From: Oscillospiraceae bacterium | Lineage (GTDB): Bacteria > Bacillota > Clostridia > Oscillospirales > Ruminococcaceae | Reading direction: 5' to 3' | Assembly: GCA_022766785.1 (NCBI GenBank) | Contig: JALEOL010000039.1 | Location: 1 to 35,235, forward strand | Length of the DNA stretch: 35,235 nt | Part shown: in pieces, positions 88 to 7,362 of the stretch | How the letters are laid out: each line of letters begins with the position of its first letter | Position numbering within the stretch: position 1 is the stretch's first letter | Program-made: the position numbers and the translations under genes | Notes under the pieces: generated by a model | Told to the model about the DNA's origin: nothing | The model's database searches: none | The model's input: only the letters and a program-made list of their open reading frames with translations

Positions 88-912
88 ATGTTAGGGTTGG
101 AAAAAAAGCTGGCTTTGTATGGCTTTAACAACCTCACAAAAACACTTAGCTTCAACATTTATGATGTGTGCTATGCAAAAAGTGAGAGGGAGCAGAAGGA
201 TTATATCGCTTACATCGACGAGCAGTATAATTCTGAAAGGCTCACAAAGATCCTCTGCGATGTCACCGAAAAGATCGGTGCGACAGTCCTCAATATATCA
301 AAGCAGGACTACGATCCGCAGGGGGCCTCTGTCAATGTCCTTTTCGCAGAGGGACATATTGACCCCGAACATGTTGACGGCTCCTGCAACAAGGGTGCCG
401 GGTTCTTTAACAGGACAGCTGCCCAGCCGGAAACTGTCCACGCACATCTTGACAAAAGTCATATCACGGTGCACACTTTCCCGGAGTATCACCCGGACAA
501 GGCAATTTCCACGTTCCGCGTGGATATCGACGTTGCCACCTGCGGCGAGATATCTCCGCTGAACACGCTGGACTACCTCATTGGCAGCTTTGACTCGGAT
601 ATAATCACGATAGATTACCGCGTCAGGGGCTTTACGAGGGACGTCACCGGCAAAAAGTGCTTTATGGACCACAAGATAACGTCTATCCAGGACTACATAA
701 ATCCGGCGACCCTTACGAAGTACGACGCAATAGATGTAAATGTGTACCAATCCAATATATTCCACACGAAAATGCTGATAAAGGAGATCGAGCTTCAGAA
801 CTACCTGTTCAACTCGGACGTGTACGAGATACACCCACAGCAGCGGCTTGAGATCACAAACAGCCTGCGCCGGGAAATGATCGAGATCTTCAGCGGAATG
901 AACATCTACTAA
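88..912 (+). CDS. speD: S-adenosylmethionine decarboxylase proenzyme (SpeD, E. coli-type)
   Basis: Makes decarboxylated AdoMet, the aminopropyl donor for spermidine synthase; a pyruvoyl enzyme produced by self-cleavage. The 274-residue protein matches the long class 1A (E. coli-like) form: it opens with [20 protein letters not shown], contains DYDPQGASV, and carries the processing motif [13 protein letters not shown], in which Ser124 would become the pyruvoyl group. [16 protein letters not shown] and [17 protein letters not shown] segments follow (here [14 protein letters not shown]), then [14 protein letters not shown]. The ATG at 88 is chosen because GAAAGG at 77-82 sits 5 bases upstream; a GTG at 85 would be too close. 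First recognised gene of the polyamine operon, 12 bases before the decarboxylase gene. No promoter is visible in the 87 bases before it. Some SpeD homologues have evolved into Arg or Orn decarboxylases, but this one keeps the canonical sequence. Confidence 0.95.
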
Positions 913-924
913 GAGGTGAGCGGA

Positions 925-2379
925 ATGAGAGAATTTCAGCTTGACCAGAGCCGCGCACCTCTTTACGAAGCAATGAAAGCGCACCGCCTTAACCGGGTGG
1001 TGCCGTTTGATGTACCCGGGCATAAGGGCGGCAGAGGGAACAAGGTGCTGACGGAATTCCTCGGCGAGAACTGCATGAAGAACGATGTCAACTCCATGAA
1101 GCCGCTTGACAATCTGTGCCACCCTGTTTCGGTGATAAAAGAAGCGCAGGAGATAGCCGCGGACGCATTCGGCGCGGAGAATTCCATATTCATCGTCAAT
1201 GGCGCGACCGGCGCGGTTCAGGCGATGGTGATGAGCGTATGCAAGGCAGGGGAGAAGATAATCCTGCCCCGGAACGTCCACCGCAGTGCGATAAACGCGC
1301 TTGTTGTGTGCGGCGCGATACCGGTGTACGTCAATCCCGGGGTGAACAACGACCTCGGAATACCCCTCGGCATGACCCCGGAGGAGGTCGAAGCGGCGAT
1401 AATTGCCAACCCGGACGCAAAGGCTGTTCTGGTAAACAATCCTACCTACTACGGGATCTGCTCCGACCTGCGCAGGATAACCGAGATAGTCCACCGCCAC
1501 GGCATGAAAGTGCTGGTTGACGAAGCCCACGGCACGCACTTCTATTTCGGCGAGGGTCTGCCCCCAAGCGCAATGAGCTGCGGTGCGGACATGGCGGCGG
1601 TTTCGGTGCACAAAACAGGCGGAAGCCTTACGCAGAGTGCAATTTTGCTGCTCGGAAAGGGGATCGACCCGAATTATGTCCGGCAGATAATCAACCTCAC
1701 ACAGACCACCAGTGCAAGCTACCTGCTGATGGTATCGCTTGACCTGGCGCGGCAGAATCTGGCGCTTAACGGCAGGGAATTCTACGCAAAGACTGTGGAG
1801 TTTGCAGAGTACGCACGAAAGGAGATCAACGCTGTCGGCGGCTATTACGCGTTTGGAAGCGAGCTTTGCGATGGAAAGGCGTTCTACGCGTTCGACAAGA
1901 CAAAGCTGTCGGTACACACGCGTGCAATGGGACTTGCAGGGATCGAGGTTTACGACCTGCTACGGGACGAGTATGGCATACAGATAGAGTTCGGCGATAT
2001 CGGCAATATCCTTGCGATAATCACCGGCGGCGATCGTTCGCTTGAGATCGAGCGGCTTCTCGGCGCACTGTCTGAGATAAAGCGTCTTTATGGAAAAAGC
2101 CCTGTGGGACTTTACGACCACGAATACATTGACCCTATCCTGGAGATGTCGCCCCAGGCGGCGTTCTATGCAGACCAGGAGACACTGCCGATAGCCGAAA
2201 CCGCAGGCAGGGTTTGCAGCGAGTTCGTCATGTGCTATCCACCGGGGATACCCATTCTCGCTCCCGGAGAGAGGATAACAGAGGATATTCTGGATTACAT
2301 TGCCTTTGCAAAAGAAAAGGGCTGCTCGCTGACGGGCTGCCGCGACATGAACGTGGAGTTTTTGCAGGTGATAAAGTGA
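925..2379 (+). CDS. Orn/Lys/Arg decarboxylase, PLP fold type I (SpeA/Cad-like)
   Basis: PLP-dependent basic amino-acid decarboxylase of the aminotransferase-fold family that includes Bacillus SpeA (arginine decarboxylase). At 484 residues it has the short Firmicutes length without the wing domain of the E. coli inducible enzymes. Visible motifs: PFDVPGHKGG near the N-terminus, the PLP-contacting VDEAHGTHFYF (Asp199), and the Schiff-base lysine in SVHKTGGSLTQS (Lys230). The start at 925 has AGAGGTG at 912-918 upstream; a GTG at 916 lies inside that site. It sits between speD and speE, so it should supply the diamine or agmatine precursor. Substrate (Arg, Lys or Orn) cannot be decided by eye. 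No agmatinase, agmatine deiminase or carbamoylputrescine amidase is in the window, which argues weakly for direct diamine production or for a ureohydrolase elsewhere. Confidence 0.9.
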   Translation: MREFQLDQSRAPLYEAMKAHRLNRVVPFDVPGHKGGRGNKVLTEFLGENCMKNDVNSMKPLDNLCHPVSVIKEAQEIAADAFGAENSIFIVNGATGAVQAMVMSVCKAGEKIILPRNVHRSAINALVVCGAIPVYVNPGVNNDLGIPLGMTPEEVEAAIIANPDAKAVLVNNPTYYGICSDLRRITEIVHRHGMKVLVDEAHGTHFYFGEGLPPSAMSCGADMAAVSVHKTGGSLTQSAILLLGKGIDPNYVRQIINLTQTTSASYLLMVSLDLARQNLALNGREFYAKTVEFAEYARKEINAVGGYYAFGSELCDGKAFYAFDKTKLSVHTRAMGLAGIEVYDLLRDEYGIQIEFGDIGNILAIITGGDRSLEIERLLGALSEIKRLYGKSPVGLYDHEYIDPILEMSPQAAFYADQETLPIAETAGRVCSEFVMCYPPGIPILAPGERITEDILDYIAFAKEKGCSLTGCRDMNVEFLQVIK

Positions 2380-5859: not shown

Positions 5860-6189
5860 ATGATAATCGGACAAACCGTAAAAGTCAAAATAGACCGCCC
5901 GCTGGGCAGCTTTCACCCAAAGCACCCCGATATTTATTATCCCGTGAATTACGGCTATGTCGAGGGAATAATCGCGCCCGACGGCGAGGAACAGGATGTG
6001 TACGTCCTCGGAGTGGACGAGCCGCTTAAAGAGTTTACGGGAAGAATTATCGCGGTAATTCACCGCCTTGATGATATCGAGGACAAGTGGGTCGCCACCC
6101 CCGAAAACGTGACCTTCACCAAAGAGGAAATCATGGAGCGGGTGCATTTTCAAGAGCAGTTTTTCAAGACGGAAATAGAAATCGAGTGA
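5860..6189 (+). CDS. Short inorganic-pyrophosphatase-like protein
   Basis: A 109-residue protein resembling only the central part of family I (soluble) inorganic pyrophosphatases, which are usually about 170 residues. The core YYPVNYGYVEG and the metal-binding stretch APDGEEQDVYVLG are present, followed by HRLDDIEDKWVATPEN, which lines up with the second acidic pair of the E. coli enzyme. One of the usual aspartates in DGDPxD is Glu here. The N-terminal strands of the classic fold are missing. ATG 5860 is chosen over an in-frame ATG at 5743 because TGGAGG at 5847-5852 precedes it and the upstream part has no family match and covers the stem-loop. Hydrolysis of PPi or a related phosphoanhydride is plausible but unproven. 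It ends 21 bases before the decarboxylase start. Confidence 0.8.
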   Translation: MIIGQTVKVKIDRPLGSFHPKHPDIYYPVNYGYVEGIIAPDGEEQDVYVLGVDEPLKEFTGRIIAVIHRLDDIEDKWVATPENVTFTKEEIMERVHFQEQFFKTEIEIE

Positions 6190-6210
6190 ATGGTACAAGA
6201 GAGGAACACT

Positions 6211-7362
6211 ATGGATTGGACGCAAAAAGTAGAAACCCCGTGCTATGTTATAGACGAAAAGCAGCTCCGCAAAAATCTGGAGCTGCTGAAATTTGTCCGG
6301 GAAAAGGCTGGCTGCAAAATACTGCTGGCGCAGAAAGCGTTCTCGGCGTTTTCTACCTATCCGCTTATCGCGGAGTACCTTGACGGCTGCACCGCAAGCG
6401 GTATCTATGAAGCGCGTTTGGGTTATGAGGAAATGGCGGAGCCATTCGGGAAAGAGAACCACGTTTTCTCCCCGGCGTACCCCGAGAGCGACATGGACGA
6501 GCTGCTGAAAATCTGCGACCACATGGTGTTCAATTCACCCCGGCAGTGGGCGAAATACCGCGATAAAGTCCGCGCAAATGACCGCTACATTCAGGCTGGA
6601 ATACGCATAAACCCGGAGTACAGCGAGATTGAAACCGACATCTACAACCCCTGCTTCACCGGGTCAAGGCTGGGGACAACTCTGGAGCGATTCACCGCAG
6701 ACCCGGCGCTGTATGAGGGGATAGACGGGCTGCACTTCCACACCATGTGCGAGCAGGGCGCGGAGGTTCTGGAGCGTACTCTGCCCCACGTTGAGGAGAA
6801 ATTCGGCTTCATGTTCGACAGGATAAAGTGGATGAATTTCGGCGGCGGTCATCATATTACAAGACCGGGCTACAATGTTGCGAAGCTCATCTCCTGCGTG
6901 AAGCGCATTCGGGAGAAGTACGGGCTTGAGGTGTACCTTGAACCCGGCGAAGCTGTCGCGCTGAATGCCGGGTGGCTTGTCACGACAGTCCTCGACACGT
7001 TCAGAAACGGCTGCGATATCGCGATAACAGACGCGTCCGCCGCCTGCCACATGCCGGACGTGCTGGAAATGCCCTACCGCCCGGAAATTATCGGCGCAGG
7101 AAAGACCGGCGAGAAGCCGCACACCTACCGTCTTGGGGGGAACACCTGCCTTGCCGGGGACGTTATCGGGGATTATTCCTTCGATAAACCGCTGGAGGGC
7201 GGCGAGCGGCTGGTGTTCTGTGATATGGCGATATATTCCATGTGTAAGAACAACACCTTTAACGGAATGCCGCTGCCGTCTGTCTATATTCTGAAAGAAA
7301 ACGGCGAATTACAGCTTGTGAAGAGGTTCGGCTATGAGGACTTCAAGGGCAGATTATCTTAA
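6211..7362 (+). CDS. nspC: Carboxynorspermidine/carboxyspermidine decarboxylase (NspC-type)
   Basis: PLP enzyme of the alanine-racemase fold (type III) that decarboxylates carboxyspermidine or carboxynorspermidine to spermidine or norspermidine. The 383-residue protein opens with VETPCYVIDEKQLRKNL, has the Schiff-base lysine in ILLAQKAFSAF (Lys42), the GLHFHTMCEQ and NFGGGHHIT segments, the PLP-phosphate segment EPGEAVALNAGW and a C-terminal VFCDMAIYSMCKNNTFNG catalytic region. ATG 6211 is preferred over ATG 6190 because AGAGAGG at 6198-6204 lies 6 bases upstream. It completes the aspartate-semialdehyde route with the dehydrogenase at 3626. The gene symbol follows the Vibrio enzyme; in this setting spermidine is as likely a product as norspermidine. 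Confidence 0.93.
   Translation: MDWTQKVETPCYVIDEKQLRKNLELLKFVREKAGCKILLAQKAFSAFSTYPLIAEYLDGCTASGIYEARLGYEEMAEPFGKENHVFSPAYPESDMDELLKICDHMVFNSPRQWAKYRDKVRANDRYIQAGIRINPEYSEIETDIYNPCFTGSRLGTTLERFTADPALYEGIDGLHFHTMCEQGAEVLERTLPHVEEKFGFMFDRIKWMNFGGGHHITRPGYNVAKLISCVKRIREKYGLEVYLEPGEAVALNAGWLVTTVLDTFRNGCDIAITDASAACHMPDVLEMPYRPEIIGAGKTGEKPHTYRLGGNTCLAGDVIGDYSFDKPLEGGERLVFCDMAIYSMCKNNTFNGMPLPSVYILKENGELQLVKRFGYEDFKGRLS

What the first reader, a model, noticed from the sequence alone, without database searches (positions are those of the whole stretch)
88..7362. Two aminopropylation routes encoded in a single polyamine operon
One tightly spaced operon encodes both the decarboxy-AdoMet route (speD, speE) and the aspartate-semialdehyde route (carboxyspermidine dehydrogenase and decarboxylase). 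Normally a genome uses one of these to make spermidine. Having both together suggests a sequential pathway (spermidine made one way, extended to spermine, thermospermine or an aminopropylcadaverine by the other), two different products, or redundancy. No ureohydrolase is in the window, so an arginine-based entry would be incomplete here.
Basis: partly seen in the sequence, partly recalled or inferred. Interest (0 to 1): 0.7.

Follow-up and report, generated by a model that had tools for sequence, protein, structure and literature searches.

The report
Spermine operon with swapped guanidine-removing enzyme
A bacterium related to gut Clostridia encodes two kinds of aminopropyl-adding enzymes in one polyamine operon, a combination already known, but it lacks the usual ureohydrolase and instead carries the two-enzyme agmatine deiminase route, which raises an easily tested question about the order of the steps.

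Summary
The operon is real: speD, a basic amino acid decarboxylase, speE, a cupin, CASDH, two unrelated genes and nspC. Two routes in one cluster are not rare: 21 of 44 CASDH genomes in a sample of the window's order have speD, speE and CASDH together, and such hybrid pathways were published in 2025 (PMC11999265). What stands out is a missing gene. In 20 of those 21 clusters a ureohydrolase gene (speB) lies between speE and CASDH; only the window lacks it. Its genome has no ureohydrolase but has adjacent aguB and aguA. In the genomes examined the two exclude each other: 14 of 44 related genomes lack ureohydrolase and all 14 have full-length AguA, 30 of 44 have it and none has full-length AguA; 44 of 44 CASDH genomes of the order sample agree. 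The state changed several times, and no operon protein shows excess change with it. Most likely AguA/AguB make putrescine, CASDH/CASDC spermidine, SpeD/SpeE spermine. That AguA/AguB act after aminopropylation, through N-carbamoylspermidine, is not excluded.

The parts
88..912 (+). speD, S-adenosylmethionine decarboxylase, E. coli-type
   Evidence: TIGR03331 above cut-off; PF02675
916..2379 (+). AAT-fold basic amino acid decarboxylase, 487 aa, the length of the short B. subtilis SpeA-like form (PMC8503589); most likely arginine decarboxylase
   Evidence: PF01276/PF03711; substrate inferred from the presence of AguA in the genome, not tested
2411..3271 (+). speE, aminopropyltransferase; probably spermine synthase by analogy with C. 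leptum
   Evidence: PRK00811 and TIGR00417 above cut-off; motifs as in solved spermidine synthases; one match in the genome
3281..3616 (+). small single-domain cupin in the slot where relatives have speB
   Evidence: PF07883; same slot in L012, L013, L015, L077 and just upstream of CASDH in L014
3626..4828 (+). CASDH, carboxyspermidine (or carboxyaminopropylagmatine) dehydrogenase
   Evidence: PF03435/PF16653; 4rl6, 4ina, 8deb, 8h4z; His-Glu-Glu stretch present
4885..5709 (+). inserted protein of no known family (CxxC pair near the start and hydrophobic stretches, read by eye); probably not part of the pathway
   Evidence: no Pfam or NCBIfam match at E 0.001; no match among 92 insert proteins of relatives
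5860..6189 (+). short inorganic-pyrophosphatase-like protein; probably not part of the pathway (frame open from 5743)
   Evidence: PF00719, 25.5 bits against 23.5; 90% identical neighbour in L012
6190..7362 (+). nspC, carboxyspermidine/carboxynorspermidine decarboxylase (CASDC); start at 6190 or 6211
   Evidence: TIGR01047 above cut-off

Best explanation
The operon is a hybrid spermine pathway in which the agmatine deiminase route stands in for the ureohydrolase. The decarboxylase makes agmatine from arginine; AguA and AguB, encoded elsewhere in the genome, turn agmatine into N-carbamoylputrescine and then putrescine; CASDH and CASDC add an aminopropyl group from aspartate semialdehyde to give spermidine; SpeD and SpeE add the second group from decarboxylated AdoMet to give spermine. 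Shown here: the genes, the absence of ureohydrolase from the assembly, the either/or with AguA in the genomes examined, and no excess change of the operon proteins with the switch. Inferred: every substrate and product, and that guanidine removal comes before aminopropylation.
For: Gene families. No PF00491 in the own genome, adjacent aguB/aguA. Of 44 related genomes 14 lack PF00491 and all 14 have full-length AguA; 30 have PF00491 and none has full-length AguA. Of 44 CASDH genomes in the order sample 41 have PF00491 and 3 (own, G135, G079) have full-length AguA; none has both, none neither. In G079, G407, G187 and G290 nspC, aguA and aguB are contiguous. AguB keeps the tail-amine glutamate (GSEP aligned to MtCPA; Glu187 by my count, role from PMC4812014). 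Precedents: putrescine from AIH/NCPAH feeding CASDH as predicted for B. theta after C. jejuni (PMC10135574), and B. theta NCPAH does turn N-carbamoylputrescine into putrescine (Km 730 uM, kcat 0.8 per s; abstract). 4 of 5 APTs tested from hybrid genomes made spermine (PMC11999265). C. leptum CASDH uses putrescine in vitro, kcat/Km 74 per M per s (PMC10413350).
Against: The C. leptum, D. desulfuricans and H. thermophila CASDH/CASDC pairs made far more N1-aminopropylagmatine than A. tumefaciens-type pairs (at least 20-fold in one comparison, about 150-fold for C. leptum against A. tumefaciens), and the authors assign them to agmatine (PMC11999265). CASDH of the speB-less genomes shows no change that tracks the switch: 0 private columns in the 9-row window clade, 1 column in step against a control median of 4. 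Putrescine Km of C. leptum and B. fragilis CASDH is 5.0 and 4.2 mM (PMC10413350). A B. theta ncpah mutant lost most spermidine but held two unidentified amines that were not N-carbamoylputrescine (PMC10135574). The decarboxylase could prefer ornithine or lysine; short forms with such activities exist in Clostridia (PMC8503589).
Confidence: 0.5

Rival explanations
1. Aminopropylation comes first. CASDH/CASDC (and SpeE) act on agmatine to give N1-aminopropylagmatine as in C. leptum, and AguA/AguB then remove the guanidine from this triamine through N-carbamoylspermidine, where the ureohydrolase acts in relatives.
For: SpeB or AguA, one or the other, with no excess change in CASDH, CASDC, SpeE, SpeD or the decarboxylase. 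CASDH/CASDC pairs of the two tested hybrid genomes make N1-aminopropylagmatine (PMC11999265). The B. theta ncpah mutant loses most spermidine and holds two unknown amines, not N-carbamoylputrescine; the parent holds spermidine as sole polyamine (PMC10135574). In AguA the residue before the catalytic His is Glu/Gln in 19 of 29 rows from CASDH genomes and Gly in 23 of 23 other rows; three residues earlier lies the tail-amine site (MtAIH Asp220, His224; PMC6447857). Carbamoyl compounds can escape notice: benzoylation destroys N-carbamoylputrescine (PMC12283126).
Against: B. theta NCPAH turns N-carbamoylputrescine into putrescine in vitro. P. aeruginosa and E. faecalis AguA make N-carbamoylputrescine in E. 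coli (PMC12283126). 10 of 29 AguA rows from CASDH genomes have Gly, so the Glu mark is not general and may be descent. Plant and P. aeruginosa CPA are reported to be tight for N-carbamoylputrescine (PMC4812014). No mention of carbamoylspermidine in the library searched (0 papers).
Confidence: 0.27
2. The two routes are redundant makers of spermidine from putrescine; SpeE is a spermidine synthase and no spermine is made.
For: The S. ovata APT from a hybrid genome made spermidine and no detectable spermine (PMC11999265). Sequence here cannot tell the two apart.
Against: 4 of 5 tested APTs from hybrid genomes (D. desulfuricans, L. buccalis, C. leptum, H. ochraceum) made spermine rather than thermospermine, besides some spermidine (same paper). 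Both routes are kept together in 21 of 44 CASDH clusters of the order sample.
Confidence: 0.14
3. The ureohydrolase is merely missing from an incomplete assembly, and AguA/AguB are an unrelated agmatine-using pair.
For: The assembly is 85.75% complete in 112 contigs.
Against: 14 related genomes with a speB-less operon also lack PF00491, and G135 and G079, 99% and 98% complete, show the same state. The slot itself is sequenced in the window and holds a cupin.
Confidence: 0.04
4. The cupin in the speB slot is the replacement guanidine-removing enzyme.
For: It sits in the speB slot in the window, L012, L013, L015 and L077, and upstream of CASDH in L014.
Against: Not found by tblastn in 9 of the 14 other loci, whose genomes all have AguA.
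Confidence: 0.02

Closest known systems
Hybrid ASA/dcAdoMet spermine pathway of Clostridium leptum and Deferribacter desulfuricans (PMC11999265)
   Same: CASDH and CASDC with AdoMetDC and one APT; AAT-fold decarboxylase as in C. leptum
   Different: The published route starts from agmatine and passes N1-aminopropylagmatine, which needs a ureohydrolase (present in C. leptum by PMC10413350); this genome has none and has AguA/AguB
Arginine decarboxylase-AIH-NCPAH-CASDH-CASDC pathway predicted for Bacteroides thetaiotaomicron after Campylobacter jejuni (PMC10135574)
   Same: AguA/AguB feed a CASDH/CASDC pathway
   Different: That scheme has no SpeD/SpeE; here both are in the CASDH operon
Pneumococcal speA/speE/CASDH/CASDC set
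   Same: Decarboxylase, speE, CASDH, CASDC (PMC7990898); agmatine deiminase and amidase next to it (recalled)
   Different: No speD annotated; the window has speD and a SpeE with canonical motifs
Carboxyaminopropylagmatine pathway of Synechocystis (Xi et al. 2023; not held, seen only as cited in PMC11999265 and PMC11998418)
   Same: CASDH-like and CASDC-like enzymes
   Different: Ends with an aminopropylagmatine ureohydrolase (legend in PMC11998418)

Membership tests
Hybrid ASA/dcAdoMet spermine pathway | CASDH and CASDC homologues present | tested here: met
Hybrid ASA/dcAdoMet spermine pathway | AdoMetDC and an APT in the same genome | tested here: met
Hybrid ASA/dcAdoMet spermine pathway | arginine decarboxylase supplies agmatine | tested here: inconclusive
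   AAT-fold family clear; arginine versus ornithine or lysine not resolved by sequence
Hybrid ASA/dcAdoMet spermine pathway | ureohydrolase to release spermidine from N1-aminopropylagmatine | tested here: not met
   no PF00491 in the genome as held
Hybrid ASA/dcAdoMet spermine pathway | APT makes spermine; CASDH prefers agmatine | not testable with these tools
   needs enzyme assays
Agmatine deiminase/NCPAH putrescine route | AguA and AguB genes, here adjacent | tested here: met
Agmatine deiminase/NCPAH putrescine route | AguB tail-amine glutamate | tested here: met
   GSEP aligned to MtCPA, role from PMC4812014
Agmatine deiminase/NCPAH putrescine route | substrates are agmatine and N-carbamoylputrescine | not testable with these tools
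   needs enzyme assays
B. theta/C. jejuni-type AIH-NCPAH-CASDH pathway | no AdoMetDC/APT arm | tested here: not met
   speD and speE lie in the same operon

The most novel reading that the evidence does not exclude
In genomes of this kind agmatine is aminopropylated first, and AguA and AguB are really an N1-aminopropylagmatine deiminase and an N-carbamoylspermidine amidohydrolase: a spermidine route with a carbamoyl triamine intermediate that bypasses free putrescine. The same would explain the two unidentified amines in the B. thetaiotaomicron ncpah mutant and would mean that part of what is annotated as the putrescine pathway in gut bacteria runs in another order.
Probability: 0.27. Interest if true: 0.78.

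Novelty: new variant of a known kind. Interest (0 to 1): 0.48.

Why it matters
Polyamines in the colon are said to come mainly from bacteria (PMC11812404, passage), and the order of steps decides whether free putrescine is an intermediate. The exchange of one enzyme for an unrelated pair, several times, with the neighbouring enzymes showing no excess change, is a natural experiment that makes the order of the CASDH pathway testable. If the bold reading holds, a compound not mentioned in the library searched is part of a widespread gut pathway.

Tried and rejected
Assembly gap as the cause of the missing ureohydrolase: rejected by relatives. The second speD-like hit on contig C61 looked like a paralogous operon; it is the end of a 12,391-base contig, 88% identical over 543 bases, best read as a second strain in the bin. 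Cupin as the replacement: not found in 9 of 14 other loci. A specificity switch in the operon proteins: columns where at least 3 lineages of the AguA genomes carry residues rare in speB genomes number 1 in CASDH, 23 in NspC, 7 in SpeE, 5 in the decarboxylase, 0 in SpeD. 60 random sets of speB clades gave medians of 4, 19, 20, 41 and 6, so none is in clear excess; NspC at 23 against 19 (control range 4 to 54) is the only one above its median, and 1 of its 23 columns shares a letter. Private CASDH columns per AguA lineage were 0, 2, 10, 5, 5, against 0 to 18 in six control clades (the seventh control, L087, had no CASDH row and its 0 means nothing). The AguA Glu mark was first seen as 16 of 17 against 9 of 9 and weakened to 19 of 29 against 23 of 23. 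The independent-pairs sign test has no power: 3 pairs on strong branches, 7 on all branches, p 0.25.

Limits. The 44 genomes are 44 of the 80 loci kept out of 589 matches to the window CASDH, so CASDH conservation in that set is partly by choice. The 14 were put in because no ureohydrolase-sized frame lies between speE and CASDH (13 loci) or a cupin lies upstream of CASDH at a contig start (L014); L056, which also showed none on the + strand, was not given to those calls. Among the 30, L038, L049, L066, L073 and L080 show no speB beside CASDH but have PF00491 in the genome. Completeness of these 44 genomes is not told by the tool. One speB locus (L087) gave no CASDH row (29 of 30). aguB was seen beside aguA in 9 of the 14 relatives; the other 5 loci show none, but hold only about 1.5 kb of flank. 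Weak or partial PF04371 matches in speB genomes: G016 (1.5e-9), G112 and G055 (2.7e-21 and 1.7e-23, frames of 266 and 273 aa); tblastn with the own AguA gives 23.6% identity in G055 and nothing in G112. Both trees are quick ones without bootstrap. Hanfrey 2011 and Xi 2023 are not held.
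Full report
What is there. The first 7.4 kb of the window (contig C95 of a 2.48 Mb, 112-contig assembly, 85.75% complete, 3.89% contaminated) carry, all on the + strand, speD, a short AAT-fold decarboxylase, speE, a cupin, CASDH, a protein of no known family, a short pyrophosphatase-like protein and nspC. SpeD, SpeE and NspC pass their NCBIfam cut-offs; the solved chains nearest to the window's CASDH include the B. fragilis carboxyspermidine dehydrogenase 8deb.

Is it unusual? 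No. In an even draw of 117 genomes of the window's order (116 of them at least 90% complete and at most 5% contaminated), 44 have CASDH. I looked at the neighbourhood of all 44 (and the window). 21 of 44 have speD, speE and CASDH in one cluster; 19 of 44 have the full order speD-decarboxylase-speE-speB-CASDH-nspC; 35 of 44 have speB in the cluster. Some clusters are cut by contig ends (for example G132, G145, G090). The biochemistry of such hybrids is published: in C. leptum and D. desulfuricans CASDH/CASDC make spermidine from agmatine through N1-aminopropylagmatine, and the APT makes spermine (PMC11999265; parts 1-5 of 7 of the text read). A figure legend in PMC8503589 describes firmicute gene clusters with speA, speB, speD, speE and casdh.

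What is odd. Of those 21 clusters the window's is the only one without a ureohydrolase. N1-aminopropylagmatine needs such an enzyme to become spermidine. The own genome has no PF00491 protein but has aguB and aguA next to each other on contig C66. Two samples suggest a rule. Among 44 genomes behind loci found with the window CASDH, 14 were put in for the lack of a speB-sized frame beside CASDH (L014 for its cupin); all 14 lack PF00491 genome-wide and have full-length AguA, while 30 of 30 others have PF00491 and no full-length AguA. In the order sample, 41 of 44 CASDH genomes have PF00491 and no full-length AguA; the other 3 (own, G135, G079) have AguA and no PF00491. The two samples may overlap. 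Without CASDH either can occur: PF00491 in G067, G111 and G159, a distant PF04371 protein (24% identical to the own AguA) in G046. In G079, G407, G187 and G290 aguA and aguB follow nspC directly, so the pair can take a place in the polyamine operon itself.

How often. A 45-row quick tree of CASDH, SpeE and the decarboxylase needs 5 changes of state, 4 of them forced by branches with SH-aLRT of at least 95. An 87-row quick CASDH tree needs 7, with 3 forced. Three AguA rows (L069 and L085, G079) are long branches whose place is unsure. A sign test on independent pairs has too few pairs to be significant. Direction of change cannot be read from these counts.

What changed with it. In 44 CASDH rows 225 of 400 columns never vary, and one column (276) has residues rare in speB genomes in at least 3 of the 5 AguA lineages; the window clade of 9 rows has no residue unseen in speB genomes. 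The other operon proteins have 23 (NspC), 7 (SpeE), 5 (decarboxylase) and 0 (SpeD) such columns; against 60 random sets of speB clades none of the five proteins is in clear excess. The set was chosen by CASDH similarity, which favours conservation of CASDH. So the operon enzymes, CASDH above all, did not visibly need to change when the guanidine-removing step was exchanged. Either CASDH takes both putrescine and agmatine well enough (C. leptum CASDH does turn over putrescine, with a 5 mM Km; PMC10413350, passages), or its substrate stayed agmatine.

Two readings follow. The conservative one: AguA/AguB make putrescine, which CASDH/CASDC turn into spermidine and SpeE into spermine. It uses known activities only and I give it 0.5. 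The bold one: AguA/AguB work on the aminopropylated product, through N-carbamoylspermidine; 0.27. For it speak the unchanged CASDH, the N1-aminopropylagmatine made by CASDH/CASDC pairs of the tested hybrid genomes, and a finding in B. thetaiotaomicron, whose predicted pathway joins AIH/NCPAH to CASDH: deleting ncpah cut spermidine to under 6 from 36-57 nmol/mg, and the mutant held two unidentified amines that were not N-carbamoylputrescine, putrescine or agmatine (PMC10135574, section 3.1 read in full; discussion passages). Against it stand the measured N-carbamoylputrescine activity of that NCPAH (abstract), the otherwise canonical look of AguA and AguB, the tight pocket reported for plant CPA (PMC4812014, passages), and the lack of the compound in the library searched (0 papers with 'carbamoylspermidine'; the listings for nearby terms, of which I looked into some papers by passage, showed me no such route). 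A Glu or Gln just before the catalytic His of AguA, near the tail-amine site, is found in 19 of 29 AguA rows from CASDH genomes and in 0 of 23 other rows. Of the 23, 15 come from genomes searched for CASDH without a match and 8 (two solved structures, six plasmids) were not searched. The mark is not general (10 of 29 have Gly) and may be descent.

Is the SpeD/SpeE arm alive here? Probably. The window's SpeE has the motifs of solved spermidine synthases. 17 of the 44 clusters show speE without speD. In 14 of these (13 with speB, plus G079) SpeE has altered active-site motifs; the other three (G132 and G145, cut by the contig end, and G051) keep canonical ones. 21 of 21 SpeEs with speD are canonical or nearly so. 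So SpeE with an intact site goes mostly with SpeD, as in the window.

Verdict. The finding as given is a new member of a published kind; the exchange of ureohydrolase for AguA/AguB makes it a new variant, with one open question of real interest, the order of the steps, that a few enzyme assays would settle.

Noticed in passing
order-sample clusters, e.g. L137 10199-11059 (G079), L197 (G060), L200 (G108), L213 (G049): 17 of 44 CASDH clusters show speE without speD; in 14 of them (13 with speB, plus G079) SpeE shares changed active-site motifs (YHEM to YDEM in 14, DG to NA in 13, EID to EMD in 13, PTYPSG to PTYAAG in 13 and PTCAAG in G079), as if repurposed away from decarboxylated AdoMet. Whether speD lies elsewhere in those genomes was not searched.
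   Followed up: partly
L020 5934-9981, L018 7689-9973, L019, L023, L024 and others: Ruminococcus polyamine operons hold up to 7 small proteins between speB and CASDH, mostly with about two membrane spans by a crude hydropathy count and many related to one another (a 26-member single-linkage group by blastp). Function unknown.
   Followed up: partly
window 3281-3616: A small cupin with an HxH...E metal motif (read by eye) lies in the speB slot in the window and four relatives, and upstream of CASDH in a fifth (L014), of 80 loci.
   Followed up: partly
G000:C61 11851-12391 (L011): Second, 88% identical start of speD at a contig end, with glutamate-synthase-like genes upstream (by eye); likely a second strain in the bin.
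   Followed up: partly
L010 8839-9942 (aguA), residue 214: Glu directly before the catalytic His in AguA of many CASDH genomes where other agmatine deiminases have Gly.
   Followed up: partly
window 4885-5709: 274-aa protein with a CxxC pair and hydrophobic stretches, no family match, inserted between CASDH and nspC.
   Followed up: no
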